A stretch of DNA of 64,000 bases from Candidatus Nanoarchaeia archaeon (lineage in GTDB: Archaea > Nanobdellota > Nanobdellia > Woesearchaeales > WJIZ01): contig JANQND010000002.1 in the NCBI GenBank assembly GCA_028279765.1, forward strand, positions 1 through 64,000. The letters are read 5' to 3'. Under the pieces are notes generated by a model that searched no databases, was not told the origin of the DNA, and saw only the letters and a list, made by a program, of their open reading frames with translations. A program made the position numbers and the translations under genes. Shown piece by piece: positions 2 to 9,492 of this stretch (positions within the stretch are counted from its first letter, which is position 1; the number at the start of each line of letters is the position of its first letter).

Positions 2-622
2 AGGCCATTCTCCTACAAAAACGCGATCTTTATTCTACTGCGTGAACATCAGGAGAAATATCAGATTGATACACATCTCAAAAAGCTCTTCGGGGACGCC
101 ATTAAGATCGTTTGGGCAGAAGAGATGACAGAAGGGTCTCCACAGTCAGTGCTGCTTGCAAAAGACCTGATAAATACTGAGGAGGAGCTCCTGATTGATT
201 TAGGGGACCAGTATCTTGACCTTGCAGGACTCATGGAGCATATCAGCGAAAAGAAAAACTCGTGTGATGGTATTATCCCCTCCTTTGAGTCAAAGTATTG
301 GAATAGAGGGTACATGACCTACGATGAGAAAGGGCATGTTAAGCATGTCTCGGAAAAAGACAAGGAACCTATTTCAAGTCACTCTACTGCCTGCATCTCT
401 TACTTCAGAAAAGGATCGGATTTTGTGAAATATACTGAGCAGATGATTCGCGGGAAGAAAACCGCAGCGAATGGTGCCTATCTCATCAGTCTCGCCTACA
501 ACGAAATGATTGCCGATAAGAAAAAGATCATCAGTTTTCCTGTAGAGTTCATTGCCCCGCTGGGTAGTGTGCAGGGAGTACGGTGTTTCGACCAAATTGA
601 CAGGCCATTGAAATGGAAATAA
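2..622 (+). CDS. Sugar nucleotidyltransferase, C-terminal part (5' truncated by window edge)
   Basis: Frame stays open from base 2; C-terminal half resembles the complete nucleotidyltransferase at 1953-2687 (YFRKGSDFVKYTEQMIRG vs YYFKSGKELIKHADEMIRK; YNEMIADKKKIISFPV vs YNEFIENRKKILNYPV). Confidence 0.75.
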   Translation, partial: RPFSYKNAIFILLREHQEKYQIDTHLKKLFGDAIKIVWAEEMTEGSPQSVLLAKDLINTEEELLIDLGDQYLDLAGLMEHISEKKNSCDGIIPSFESKYWNRGYMTYDEKGHVKHVSEKDKEPISSHSTACISYFRKGSDFVKYTEQMIRGKKTAANGAYLISLAYNEMIADKKKIISFPVEFIAPLGSVQGVRCFDQIDRPLKWK

Positions 623-1371
623 TAAGCCATAGGGGGATCGGCTTTGGGCATGCGGAAAATAGCATTCCTGCATTAACGCAGGCACTGGATTTGGGTTTCT
701 CTATTGAAATTGACATCAGGATGAGCAAAGACGGAGTGCCTTTTGTAGTGCATGATGCAAATCTTGATCGATTATTTTCAAAAGGAGGTAAGGTTAGAGA
801 CTATCCTGCAAAGGACTTAGCATCAGTCCACTATAAAGAGAACTCATCATTTTCGATAGTGCAGTTTGAGGAAATAGTACAATACTTCAAAAAGATAAAA
901 AACAGAGATCCTCATAACAGCAGTAAGATTTTCGTGCATGTTCAGGATATAAACGAAGAGAATGTTCTTGAGAGTATCGCACAGATTATTTCTGATTTAG
1001 AAAAAGAAGATTTCTTTAGGATATTTGCAGTCGATGAAATGAGTATTCCAAGTATCAGGATGATACGGAAAATAGACCCTCAATTAAAAGTAGGGCTTTA
1101 TCTCCCGCAGAGTTCAGAGCGTTTCTCAGAAGAATTCTTCAAAGAAAACGATTTTGATTTTGTTTGGGCAGATGAGCAAAGGGGCTGGTTTTCAAAAGAG
1201 ATGGTGCAGCTGGCACACACATCCAGCAAAGAAATTTACGCAATATCTCCTGAAATCTTAAATGAAAAAGATGAGCAAAGATGGAAAGAATTGATTGAGT
1301 TCGGGTTTGATGGAATTTGCACAGACCTTCCAAAAGAGTTAAAAAGTATCATAGAGAACATGCATTCATAA
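613..1371 (+). CDS. Glycerophosphodiester phosphodiesterase (GDPD) family protein
   Basis: N-terminal ISHRGIGFGHAENSIPALTQALDLGFSIEIDIRMSKDGVPFVVHDANLDR is the GDPD signature; start overlaps the preceding stop. Confidence 0.88.
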   Translation: MEIISHRGIGFGHAENSIPALTQALDLGFSIEIDIRMSKDGVPFVVHDANLDRLFSKGGKVRDYPAKDLASVHYKENSSFSIVQFEEIVQYFKKIKNRDPHNSSKIFVHVQDINEENVLESIAQIISDLEKEDFFRIFAVDEMSIPSIRMIRKIDPQLKVGLYLPQSSERFSEEFFKENDFDFVWADEQRGWFSKEMVQLAHTSSKEIYAISPEILNEKDEQRWKELIEFGFDGICTDLPKELKSIIENMHS

Positions 1372-1952: not shown

Positions 1953-2687
1953 TTAGTTCAGTGAAGGAAGCTTATCTTTATTTTCTTCAAATTCCTCAGG
2001 AGTTCCCAAAGACCACATCTCAGCTACGGGGTAGTTAAGGATCTTTTTTCTGTTCTCTATAAATTCATTATAGACAGGACAAACATAGAACTCATTATTC
2101 GTTCTGATATTCTTTCGGATCATCTCATCGGCATGCTTGATTAGTTCTTTTCCGGATTTAAAGTAATAAATACCTACAGCACCGTGGTTGCTGATGACCT
2201 GTTTTTCAGCAGTTTGGATGATAACTTTATCCTTAACCTTGGCATAGCTAAAGCCGGCATTATCCGTATCTATAGTAACGATTCCTCCGTCTGCATCGTG
2301 CCTTCTCACATAATCAAGGAAATGCTGAGGGATCCAGTCTATTACCTGATCGCAGTCTTTGATTATCATTTCATCATCGCTGTCAAAATATCCTTTTGCC
2401 TCAAGAACAGTACAGATAGCACCCTGTGTTATAGCATCAAGCACAAAGATTTGAGCATCGGGGATGATTTTTTTCAGAACTTTGTCAAGGTTGTGTTCCT
2501 CGACATGATCTTTTCGTACAATAAAGATAAAATTAGCCTCGGGAAATTTCATGCAATCAAGAACATATTCAATAATATATTTATCCCCTATCTTGATAAG
2601 CGGTTTAGGTTCAGTATACCCTTCATTAATAAAGCGCTGTCCTCTTCCTGCCATAGGCATTACAAGGTTGACCTTCTTAGCGCTCAT
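1953..2687 (-). CDS. Sugar nucleotidyltransferase (NTP_transferase family)
   Basis: VNLVMPMAGRGQRFINEGYTEPKPLIKIGDKYIIEYVLD signature; start at MSAKK overlaps the upstream stop as ATGA (2684-2687). Confidence 0.85.
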   Translation of the reverse strand: MSAKKVNLVMPMAGRGQRFINEGYTEPKPLIKIGDKYIIEYVLDCMKFPEANFIFIVRKDHVEEHNLDKVLKKIIPDAQIFVLDAITQGAICTVLEAKGYFDSDDEMIIKDCDQVIDWIPQHFLDYVRRHDADGGIVTIDTDNAGFSYAKVKDKVIIQTAEKQVISNHGAVGIYYFKSGKELIKHADEMIRKNIRTNNEFYVCPVYNEFIENRKKILNYPVAEMWSLGTPEEFEENKDKLPSLN

Positions 2688-3934
2688 TCTACATACCCCC
2701 ATTTTTCGATAGCTGCTTTCAGTTCGGGTTTGGATTTCATGTACTGGTGGATATCTTCTCCTAATTGGCAGCATTCGAAAGCCTGCCTCATAGCCTTTGC
2801 GCCTGCCTCAGTGCCTTTCGGATGACCCTGAATTGCGCCCCCTACGTTCATCATAAGATCCGTTCCAAAGTTTTTCACTGTAGTATTGACCAATCCAGGG
2901 TGGCTTCCACAGGAAAGCGAAGGTACAGTCGGGTTAAATGTCCCCTTATTTCGTAGGATATTCATGACTTCTGTTAGGTCCTGCTTGGAATCAGAAAGAT
3001 AGCCTCCCCACATTCCTGCATGGATAAAATCAGAGCCAACTACTCGTGCGATTTGGCAGACAATAGGCCAATTAATATGATAGCGATGATACGCTTCTGT
3101 TATGACTTTGTCTCCGCTCTTCTGAAAAAATATCCCGGTGTTTTTCATGTCCAGGTCGCGAAGTGCTCGATATGACGGAAGTCCTGCCCAGATATTCAGG
3201 TGAACCGATCGAATACCCATATCTGCTGCGAACTGTGCTCGTTCAAGAAAATAAGGATAGTCACTATTGATGCAGGGTGTAAAGAATATCTCTCTACCTT
3301 CGTCATCACAAAAGTCATTGACCATATTAGAAACAACTTCAACCCTCTCTTTAAAAGGGCAGAATTTAGGGCTTCCCAGAATTTCATCTTCTTTGATAAA
3401 GTCAACTCCTCCGCGAAGCAGCTCCATGACTAGTTCTTTGAGCTGTGGAACAGTAATGCCTGTCTTTGGCTTTACAATACCTCCCAAGAGAGGCCTATCA
3501 ATTGCCTTTGCGCGTTTCTTGATATTATCCATTCCAAATTTCGGGCCTTTGTAGGCTTTAAGATATGCTGGCGGAAGCTTCAGATCAACTAACTTGCAGG
3601 CATCAATAATATCAATATCCATCTGACCACCCATCAATGCACAAATAAGCTGGGTTACACCGTCCTCGTCATCAAAATTAACAATGGGGTACGCTATCTT
3701 CACCAGACCATGGTGACGGGACTTCAGGTCGTTGCTGGTTCCGATGATCTTTGCAAGATTATCCCGAAGAAGTTGAGGTGTCTCCCGCTGTGTTCGTACA
3801 TCGGGATTGCCGATCGACTGGCCAATCGCAATTGCTTTTGCTGCTTTAAGAAAATCCTTGCTCTCGACGTGGTAAGTCGCAAAAATGTGTGTCTCTTCAT
3901 CGACACTAGGCTGGAAGAGGTATTCATCTATCAT
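2684..3934 (-). CDS. RuBisCO large-subunit-like protein (probable RuBisCO-like protein)
   Basis: GGIVKPKTGIT, GGVDFIKEDEILGSPKFCPFKERV, DFIHAGMWGG, GGAIQGHPKGTEAGAKAMRQAFE align to RuBisCO; loop-6 Lys (K334 spinach) is Tyr. Confidence 0.92.
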   Translation of the reverse strand: MIDEYLFQPSVDEETHIFATYHVESKDFLKAAKAIAIGQSIGNPDVRTQRETPQLLRDNLAKIIGTSNDLKSRHHGLVKIAYPIVNFDDEDGVTQLICALMGGQMDIDIIDACKLVDLKLPPAYLKAYKGPKFGMDNIKKRAKAIDRPLLGGIVKPKTGITVPQLKELVMELLRGGVDFIKEDEILGSPKFCPFKERVEVVSNMVNDFCDDEGREIFFTPCINSDYPYFLERAQFAADMGIRSVHLNIWAGLPSYRALRDLDMKNTGIFFQKSGDKVITEAYHRYHINWPIVCQIARVVGSDFIHAGMWGGYLSDSKQDLTEVMNILRNKGTFNPTVPSLSCGSHPGLVNTTVKNFGTDLMMNVGGAIQGHPKGTEAGAKAMRQAFECCQLGEDIHQYMKSKPELKAAIEKWGYVE

Positions 3935-8613: not shown

Positions 8614-9492
8614 ATGATAAAAGAAGTTCCCCTTGTAGATACAGGAAAGAAAAGAAATGAGAAATATCAATGGTATAAGTATGTCTCTAAGAATCTGTAC
8701 AAACGTCACAAATTCAAGATGCACAGTCTGTTGAATCACGGGACCACTGATTTCTTCAATGCAGTTGAAATTGAAACAACCACGTTTTGTAACAGAAGAT
8801 GTCCTTACTGTCCGAACGCGCTTTTTGACAGGGGATTAAAAGAAAACGAAAAAAGGATGCCCGAAGAACTCTTCCAATCCATCATCAATCAGCTATCTGA
8901 TCTCCGATATATAGGCAGAGTTTCACTCCATTTCTATGGAGAGCCCACCTCTGATGAACGATTGCCTGATTTTGTTGCATATGCAAGGAAGAAATTGCCT
9001 AAGTCTGAAATACTTATCGCAAGTAATGGGGATTACCTAAGCCCTGAATATTTTGAGAAGCTGCGCAAAGCAGGGATCAGCAGGATTAATCTTACTACCC
9101 ACTGGCCCAATAAAACGATGACGCCAAAAATAAAAGCGCTTCGCACATATTTGAGGGAGAATCCGCAATCGGAGGTACAGGTCATATACAACGAGCTGAC
9201 TCCTGAGGATGATCTTGAAAACAGGGGAGGAATCTTTAAAACAAAAAAGTTCGTTCCCCGTAAATCGTGCCATGCTCCGGCAGAGACCATGAACATTGAT
9301 TATCAGGGAAACTGGGTGCTTTGCTGTAATGACTACCACAGTAGCATAAAATGGGGAAATCTGGAAAAAGAAAAAATCATGGATATATGGACCAAGCCTC
9401 GATTCGCACGTCTTCGCAAGCGGGAAAAGGAAGGTAAGTTTGATCTCAAGATTTGCCAGGGCTGTACCAATAAGGTTCAACTGGATCTCTAG
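8614..9492 (+). CDS. Radical SAM protein with SPASM-like C-terminal domain
   Basis: EIETTTFCNRRCPYCPNALF (CxxxCxxC); C-terminal CHAPAETMNIDYQGNWVLCCNDYH and ICQGCTN cysteines. Confidence 0.9.
   Translation: MIKEVPLVDTGKKRNEKYQWYKYVSKNLYKRHKFKMHSLLNHGTTDFFNAVEIETTTFCNRRCPYCPNALFDRGLKENEKRMPEELFQSIINQLSDLRYIGRVSLHFYGEPTSDERLPDFVAYARKKLPKSEILIASNGDYLSPEYFEKLRKAGISRINLTTHWPNKTMTPKIKALRTYLRENPQSEVQVIYNELTPEDDLENRGGIFKTKKFVPRKSCHAPAETMNIDYQGNWVLCCNDYHSSIKWGNLEKEKIMDIWTKPRFARLRKREKEGKFDLKICQGCTNKVQLDL

What the first reader, a model, noticed from the sequence alone, without database searches (positions are those of the whole stretch)
2684..3934. RuBisCO-like protein with key RuBisCO residues replaced, inside a glycan cluster
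Seen: RuBisCO fold motifs are clear (GGIVKPKTG, GGVDFIKEDE, FIHAG, GGAIQGHPKG). In a by-eye gapless alignment to spinach/Thermococcus RuBisCO, the carbamylation Lys and metal ligands (K201, D203, E204), K175 and H327 are kept, but loop-6 K334 is Tyr (HAGMWGGYL vs HAGTVVGKL), N123 is Gly (MGGQ vs VGNV), and the H294/R295/H298 segment is lost (FFQKSGDKVITEAY replaces the HxHRAMHA region). Established: form IV RuBisCO-like proteins lose such residues and do enolase/isomerase-type chemistry, not carboxylation. Inference: a metal-dependent sugar-phosphate enolase/isomerase in envelope glycan metabolism, possibly an undescribed RLP clade.
Basis: partly seen in the sequence, partly recalled or inferred. 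Interest (0 to 1): 0.8.

Follow-up and report, generated by a model that had tools for sequence, protein, structure and literature searches.

The report
RuBisCO-like enzyme in phage glycan operons
This archaeal gene belongs to a distinct branch of the RuBisCO superfamily that has almost certainly lost CO2 fixation, travels in a small sugar-activation gene set, and is carried by hundreds of uncultured virus contigs, where such genes risk being read as carbon-fixing RuBisCO.

Summary
Confirmed: window 2684-3934, minus strand, encodes an intact 416-aa RuBisCO-fold protein (model pLDDT 94; nearest solved fold is form III RuBisCO, TM 0.90, 26-28% identity). It keeps K175, K177, K201, D203, E204, H327 and S379, but N123 is Gly, H294 is Gln, R295 is Lys, H298 is Asp and K334 is Tyr. 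The His-Arg segment is replaced in register, not lost, and the replacements are almost invariant in relatives from archaea, several bacterial phyla and viruses. They form one clade (100/99), far below every curated RuBisCO or RLP family cut-off.

Most important: 97 of 101 loci carry a sugar-1-phosphate nucleotidyltransferase within 3.5 kb; most also carry a cupin (70) and a GDPD-like phosphodiesterase (77). In the window the RLP and nucleotidyltransferase genes overlap by ATGA. An IMG/VR scan found 343 relatives, many of the larger contigs bearing T4-type capsid genes; scans for forms I and III, OiaX and MtnW found none. Cellular copies are rare.

Likely role (inferred): a carbamate/Mg-dependent proton-transfer enzyme on a small phosphorylated ketose, feeding the nucleotidyltransferase for surface-glycan decoration. 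The reaction is unproven. The clade may be, or contain, the sequence-only "IV-GOS" group, which I could not compare.

The parts
2684..3934 (-). RuBisCO-like protein (RLP), 416 aa
   Evidence: ORF and translation; Pfam; AlphaFold2 pLDDT 94.2; PDB fold match TM 0.90 to form III RuBisCO
1953..2687 (-). Nucleotidyltransferase NT1 (244 aa), partner gene; its ATG overlaps the RLP stop (ATGA)
   Evidence: Pfam NTP_transferase 3e-5; PHROG 3980, no known function, 1.3e-63; GxGxR...PKPL motif and conserved acidic metal-ligand Asp; fold nearest 4evw, then UDP/dTDP-sugar pyrophosphorylases; overlap
613..1371 (+). GDPD-family phosphodiesterase, homologue of the mini-GDPD of the module
   Evidence: Pfam GDPD 1.2e-21; matched by the mini-GDPD profile (27 bits); shared HR(G), ExD, HD residues
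2..622 (+). NT2, paralogue of NT1, cut by the contig end; its SAR11 homologues lack the GxGxR...PKP signature
   Evidence: Clusters with the NT family; reading frame and SAR11 NT2 sequences
3110..3124 (-). Q-K-S-G-D (residues 271-275), replacing H294-R-A-M/G-H298
2999..3001 (-). Tyr312 codon at the K334 position of loop 6
3383..3394 (-). K181-E-D-E184 (K201/D203/E204: carbamate lysine and metal ligands, kept)
3611..3634 (-). MGGQMDID (residues 101-108); N123 position is Gly103

Best explanation
A member of a distinct, non-carboxylating RuBisCO-like clade that supplies a building block to a sugar nucleotidyltransferase encoded next to it. Shown by sequence: RuBisCO fold; intact carbamate lysine and two acidic Mg ligands; K175 and K177 kept; a family-specific set of barrel-mouth residues; loss of K334 and N123, which CO2 chemistry needs; near-obligate gene linkage to a nucleotidyltransferase, usually with a cupin and a GDPD. 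Inferred: the enzyme binds a small phosphorylated ketose, with its phosphate at the site that holds C5-phosphate of RuBP (R295 to Lys, H327 and S379 kept; the opposite half from MtnW, which lost R295 and H327). The carbamylated Lys181 with Mg2+ removes a proton and makes an enediolate, which is reprotonated elsewhere (isomerase or tautomerase) rather than carboxylated, with Tyr312, Gln271 and Asp275 as new catalytic or binding groups. The cupin may epimerise. The product (as a phosphate) is activated by the nucleotidyltransferase to NDP-X for decorating the archaeal or bacterial envelope, or the phage or its host. The GDPD would act on a phosphodiester intermediate or donor.
For: Active-site table against forms I, III, OiaX and MtnW, conservation over 100 sequences. 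Invariant residues lie at the C-terminal ends of the barrel strands of a pLDDT-94 model. Gene linkage: NT in 97, GDPD in 77 and cupin in 70 of 101 loci; order NT-CUP-RLP-GDPD in 46 loci and the reverse GDPD-RLP-CUP-NT in Azospirillum and Elusimicrobia; gene overlaps. NT distances track RLP distances (Mantel rho 0.60, p 0.001, n 41), cupin 0.37 (p 0.002). NT has the sugar-nucleotidyltransferase fold; GDPD active-site residues kept. Glycan-gene surroundings in the window. NT fused to HAD phosphatase in several viruses.
Against: No substrate, product or activity is known; a decarboxylase or oxygenase role cannot be excluded (OiaX also has Gly at N123). GDPD and cupin are missing from some loci (Legionella has only RLP and NT), and GDPD does not co-diverge with the RLP (rho 0.01). 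The nucleotide used by NT is undetermined. No reductase or kinase is consistently linked, so the route from central metabolism is open.
Confidence: 0.55

Rival explanations
1. A decarboxylase or oxygenase/C-C cleaving RLP, as in OiaX (3-oxo-isoapionate-4-phosphate decarboxylase) or the hamamelose-pathway RLP, making a shorter phosphorylated sugar for NT.
For: OiaX also has Gly at N123 and keeps K175 and the metal ligands. C-C bond chemistry is the ancestral repertoire of the fold; an oxygenase RLP is cited in PMC10173188.
Against: OiaX keeps K334, H294 and R295, all replaced here. No four-carbon acid sugar kinase or uronate-type catabolic genes are consistently linked, unlike the OiaX-type loci.
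Confidence: 0.22
2. A functional RuBisCO (viral or archaeal CO2 fixation), divergent but carboxylating.
For: Carbamate and Mg ligands, K175 and K177 kept. Viral rbcL genes have been reported as carbon-fixing, with activity claimed for one (PMC12615777).
Against: K334 is Tyr in every family sequence and N123 is Gly; H294, R295 and H298 are replaced. Scores are less than half the form III cut-off (231 vs 497 bits). The gene sits in glycan loci, not with Calvin-cycle or nucleoside-pathway genes.
Confidence: 0.04
3. The clade is the already named IV-GOS group, so the gene is only a new archaeal member of a described (but functionally unknown) clade. This is about naming and does not exclude the functional explanations.
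For: SAR11 members dominate the cellular hits, the GOS survey reported novel RuBisCO groups with altered N123 among other sites (PMC1821046), and IV-GOS is defined from ocean sequences.
Against: Not testable here: IV-GOS sequences and the defining paper are not held. The GOS paper also lists K177 and H327 as poorly conserved, which are kept here. Even if true, the operon, the viral distribution and the role are not described in any paper found.
Confidence: 0.5
4. A non-catalytic RuBisCO-fold scaffold or regulator of the nucleotidyltransferase.
For: Tight genetic coupling and co-divergence with NT.
Against: Complete conservation of the metal and carbamate site and of a barrel-mouth residue set speaks for catalysis.
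Confidence: 0.05

Closest known systems
Form III RuBisCO (Pyrococcus/Thermococcus; PDB 2cwx, 2d69, 3a12)
   Same: Best fold match (TM 0.90, 26-28% identity); same metal and carbamate site, K175, K177, H327, S379, glycine phosphate site
   Different: N123, H294, R295, H298, K334, T65, E60 replaced; separate clade; 231 bits against a cut-off of 497
MtnW, 2,3-diketo-5-methylthiopentyl-1-phosphate enolase (IV-YkrW)
   Same: Nearest clade in the tree (95/85); RLP-type loss of carboxylation residues; Gly at E60
   Different: MtnW has Lys at 123 and lost R295 and H327; this family has Gly123, Gln294, Lys295, His327, Tyr334; 170 bits against cut-off 514; glycan instead of methionine-salvage context
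OiaX, 3-oxo-isoapionate-4-phosphate decarboxylase, and related RLPs
   Same: Gly at N123 (OiaX); metal and carbamate site kept
   Different: OiaX keeps K334, H294 and R295, loses K177 and H327; 141 bits against cut-off 700; catabolic context with a four-carbon acid sugar kinase
IV-GOS RuBisCO-like proteins
   Same: Ocean-derived, function unknown; SAR11 members here make overlap likely (inference)
   Different: Could not be compared; no operon, structure or viral link found in the held papers
Viral 'rbcL' auxiliary metabolic genes (PMC12615777, PMC12607003, PMC8506154)
   Same: RuBisCO-superfamily genes on viral contigs; the landfill one clustered with 'RbcL-like' proteins
   Different: Those papers label them as carboxylase/carbon fixation; the 80 IMG/VR members read here lack K334 and N123. 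Whether the published genes belong to this clade is untested

Membership tests
RuBisCO superfamily | N-terminal domain plus TIM-barrel RuBisCO large-chain fold | tested here: met
   Pfam both domains; model TM 0.90 to 3a12/2d69
RuBisCO superfamily | Carbamate lysine and Mg ligands (K201, D203, E204) and K175 | tested here: met
   Kept in all family rows
Form I/II/III RuBisCO (carboxylase) | Loop-6 K334, N123, H294, R295, H298, T65, E60 | tested here: not met
   All replaced
Form III RuBisCO | Phylogenetic placement with form III; TIGR03326 cut-off 497 bits | tested here: not met
   Separate clade, AU p 0.042 for joining with form III alone; 231 bits
Form IV / RuBisCO-like protein (broad sense) | RuBisCO homologue with substituted catalytic residues | tested here: met
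Form IV / RuBisCO-like protein (broad sense) | No RuBP carboxylase/oxygenase activity | not testable with these tools
   needs purified protein
MtnW (IV-YkrW) | TIGR03332 cut-off 514 bits; Lys at 123; methionine-salvage context | tested here: not met
   170 bits; Gly at 123; glycan context
OiaX | NF042437 cut-off 700 bits; K334/H294/R295 kept | tested here: not met
   141 bits; Tyr/Gln/Lys
IV-GOS | Clusters with the GOS reference sequences of Tabita 2007 | not testable with these tools
   paper and sequences not held; name known from PMC10173188
IV-Photo / IV-NonPhoto / IV-AMC | Phylogenetic placement | tested here: inconclusive
   IV-Photo and IV-AMC references not in the tree; the proteobacterial type-IV references in the tree lie outside the family clade; IV-Photo structures 1tel/1ykw score lower (about 135 bits) than form III
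Sugar-1-phosphate nucleotidyltransferase (partner NT1) | GxGxR...PKP signature and conserved acidic metal ligand, fold | tested here: met
   nucleotide and sugar unknown

The most novel reading that the evidence does not exclude
The RLP/nucleotidyltransferase/cupin/GDPD set is an undescribed, mobile pathway to an unknown nucleotide-activated sugar, spread largely by T4-type and giant phages and sporadically acquired by cells (SAR11, Legionella, DPANN archaea). It is also the dominant RuBisCO-superfamily gene of viruses, so viral 'rbcL' carbon-fixation genes reported from metagenomes may often be this non-carboxylating enzyme.
Probability: 0.5. Interest if true: 0.85.

Novelty: new variant of a known kind. 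Interest (0 to 1): 0.72.

Why it matters
Only a few RuBisCO-like proteins have known reactions, all known to me in catabolism or salvage. A clade tied to nucleotide-sugar making would open a biosynthetic role for the fold and give a testable substrate space: the product must be accepted by the neighbouring nucleotidyltransferase. It also bears on a live claim: recent papers treat viral rbcL as carbon-fixing (PMC12615777, PMC12607003). In IMG/VR the scans here found 343 relatives of this type (the 80 read all lack the carboxylation residues) and none of forms I or III, OiaX or MtnW, so viral RuBisCO annotations need an active-site check before they enter carbon budgets.

Tried and rejected
LicD link (CDP-X phosphotransfer): LicD lies next to RLP-NT in Legionella, but only 4 of 50 genomes or records have LicD (three Legionella, one virus), so it is not general. 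Form III membership: rejected. Viral fold library: no RuBisCO fold in BFVD (best TM 0.40). INPHARED phages: no match in 50,697 records, so the viral members come from uncultured contigs. Plasmids: all matches under 60% identity; the 30 rows shown are at most 29% identical and, where named, of OiaX, MtnW or other RLP types. PHROGs: no family matches the RLP. GDPD co-divergence test: no signal. Papers tying an RLP to nucleotidyltransferases or glycan loci: none found. First ORF-based gene calls in GC-rich loci (L016, L014) missed partner genes; redone by six-frame profile search.

Full report
The observation. The ORF at 2684-3934 is on the minus strand and encodes 416 aa. Both Pfam RuBisCO domains match (1.3e-45 and 7.8e-9). 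All NCBIfam RuBisCO/RLP models that hit are far below their cut-offs: form III 231 of 497 bits, MtnW 170 of 514, OiaX 141 of 700. It is the only RuBisCO homologue found in its genome assembly (1.5 Mb, 90% complete). The window is chromosomal: ribosomal proteins, SecY, PheRS and shikimate genes (recognised by eye from the translations) lie from about 37 kb on, and a 5S rRNA gene at 32.8 kb. The first 31 kb are an envelope-glycan island.

Active site. K175, K177, K201, D203, E204, H327, S379, G381, G403 and G404 are kept. N123 is Gly103 and K334 is Tyr312. The H294-R295-H298 segment is not lost but replaced in register by Gln271-Lys272-Ser-Gly-Asp275. T65 is Asn43, E60 is Gly38 and G380 is Cys342. 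In 100 family sequences these positions are 95-100% conserved, so the change is a maintained new site and not decay. Gln at 294 and Tyr at 334 occurred in no other group compared. The AlphaFold2 model (39-sequence alignment, pLDDT 94.2) matches form III RuBisCO best (TM 0.90, 26-28% identity); the invariant residues fall at the C-terminal ends of the barrel strands, where TIM-barrel active sites lie.

The clade. A protein scan of GTDB genomes gave 20 loci: Pacearchaeota (71% identity), Woesearchaeota, Verrucomicrobiia, many SAR11, Crocinitomicaceae, Elusimicrobia, Azospirillum, three Legionella, and a contig in a Sphingobacteriales bin that, from its neighbouring genes, looks like phage (L021). 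A 42-row tree holds the family together at 100/99, next to MtnW (95/85), with form III, form I and the OiaX-type clades apart; forcing it with form III alone is weakly rejected (AU p 0.042). I had no IV-GOS, IV-AMC or IV-Photo references. IV-GOS is a named, sequence-only ocean clade and may be this clade or part of it; the 2007 GOS survey reported 65 RuBisCO homologues outside known groups.

Rarity in cells. Using the family profiles, members score about 355-670 bits and all other RuBisCO forms 255 or less. Family members occur in 2 of 279 genomes of the window's phylum, 2 of 147 SAR11, 1 of 299 in the phylum of Azospirillum, 4 of 22 Legionella and 1 of 248 in the phylum of the Crocinitomicaceae genome; in each search the centre genome is itself counted. 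The distribution is patchy, as expected of horizontal transfer.

Viruses. The same profile found 343 relatives in IMG/VR; the best 80 were fetched, at 42-47% identity, and essentially all carry the family signature. They fall into 25 groups at 80% identity. Of 49 viral records searched, 14 have the T4 capsid gene Gp23 on the same contig and 16 a terminase above cut-off, including contigs of 170-520 kb, so many are genuine large phages. Scans of the same collection with form I, form III, OiaX-type and MtnW queries found no relatives; these scans start from short peptide patterns, so rare divergent cases could be missed. No cultured phage genome, PHROG or BFVD structure shows this protein.

The module. 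Six-frame profile searches in 101 loci put a nucleotidyltransferase within 3.5 kb on the same strand in 97, a mini-GDPD in 77 and a small cupin in 70. The commonest order is NT-cupin-RLP-GDPD (46 loci, many of them related viruses); Azospirillum and Elusimicrobia have the reverse order GDPD-RLP-cupin-NT, so the set stays together through rearrangement. In the window the RLP stop and NT start overlap as ATGA. A full-size GDPD and a second, diverged NT copy lie on the other strand at 613-1371 and 2-622; the same parts occur in SAR11 (GDPD-NT2-RLP-NT1) and Verrucomicrobiia. NT divergence tracks RLP divergence (Mantel rho 0.60, p 0.001, 41 loci non-redundant at 85%), the cupin less so (0.37, p 0.002), GDPD not at all; shared ancestry of whole operons contributes to this. 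NT has the sugar-1-phosphate nucleotidyltransferase fold, nearest to 4evw and then UDP- and dTDP-sugar pyrophosphorylases. The GDPD keeps the HR(G), ExD and HD residues. NT is fused to a HAD phosphatase in some viruses.

How it probably works (inference). Kept carbamate lysine and Mg ligands point to enolate chemistry on a ketose phosphate. The kept P2-side residues (H327, S379, R295 to Lys) suggest a phosphate at the RuBP C5 end; this is the reverse of MtnW. Loss of K334 and N123 argues against carboxylation. The product would be activated by NT. Substrate, nucleotide and the roles of cupin and GDPD are unknown. A decarboxylase or oxygenase variant is the main chemical rival.

Literature. Viral rbcL genes are reported as carbon-fixing in contaminated soils, with activity claimed for one gene (PMC12615777), in the Great Salt Lake (PMC8506154) and in landfills, where the gene clustered with RbcL-like proteins (PMC12607003). 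I could not place those sequences. The finding here gives a simple check: residues 123, 294, 295 and 334.

Noticed in passing
window 2-622; L004, L006-L009 (NT2): A second nucleotidyltransferase copy beside the module; the SAR11 copies have lost the GxGxR...PKP signature, suggesting a changed or partner role.
   Followed up: partly
L078, L079, L085, L087, L092, L094, L095: In one viral group the RLP is followed by an APH/fructosamine-kinase-like protein and a 3-dehydroquinate-synthase-like sugar-phosphate cyclase.
   Followed up: partly
L159-L162 (Legionella): All four Legionella RLP matches contain one stop codon inside the profile match (TAA or TAG); the ORF ends before the C-terminal residues shared by the other members.
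   Followed up: no
L018-L020: A LicD-family phosphotransferase lies divergently next to RLP-NT in Legionella.
   Followed up: yes
L015, L008: By eye, a CotH-like protein lies near the RLP in a Woesearchaeota and a SAR11 contig (one sequence cluster), with a DUF4956-like gene beside it in L015.
   Followed up: no
L016 6771-9568: The Azospirillum operon is followed by CysD- and CysNC-like genes (sulphate activation), hinting at sulphated glycans.
   Followed up: no
L004-L007 and L010: Two different versions of the module sit beside the same SAR11 neighbour genes (clusters C5, C7, C8), as if at one variable island.
   Followed up: partly
loci L104-L121: About a third of the sampled genomes of the window's phylum carry a RuBisCO homologue, nearly all of other (form III-like) types; the window genome has only the RLP.
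   Followed up: no
window 8614-9492: Radical SAM/SPASM protein inside the glycan island.
   Followed up: no
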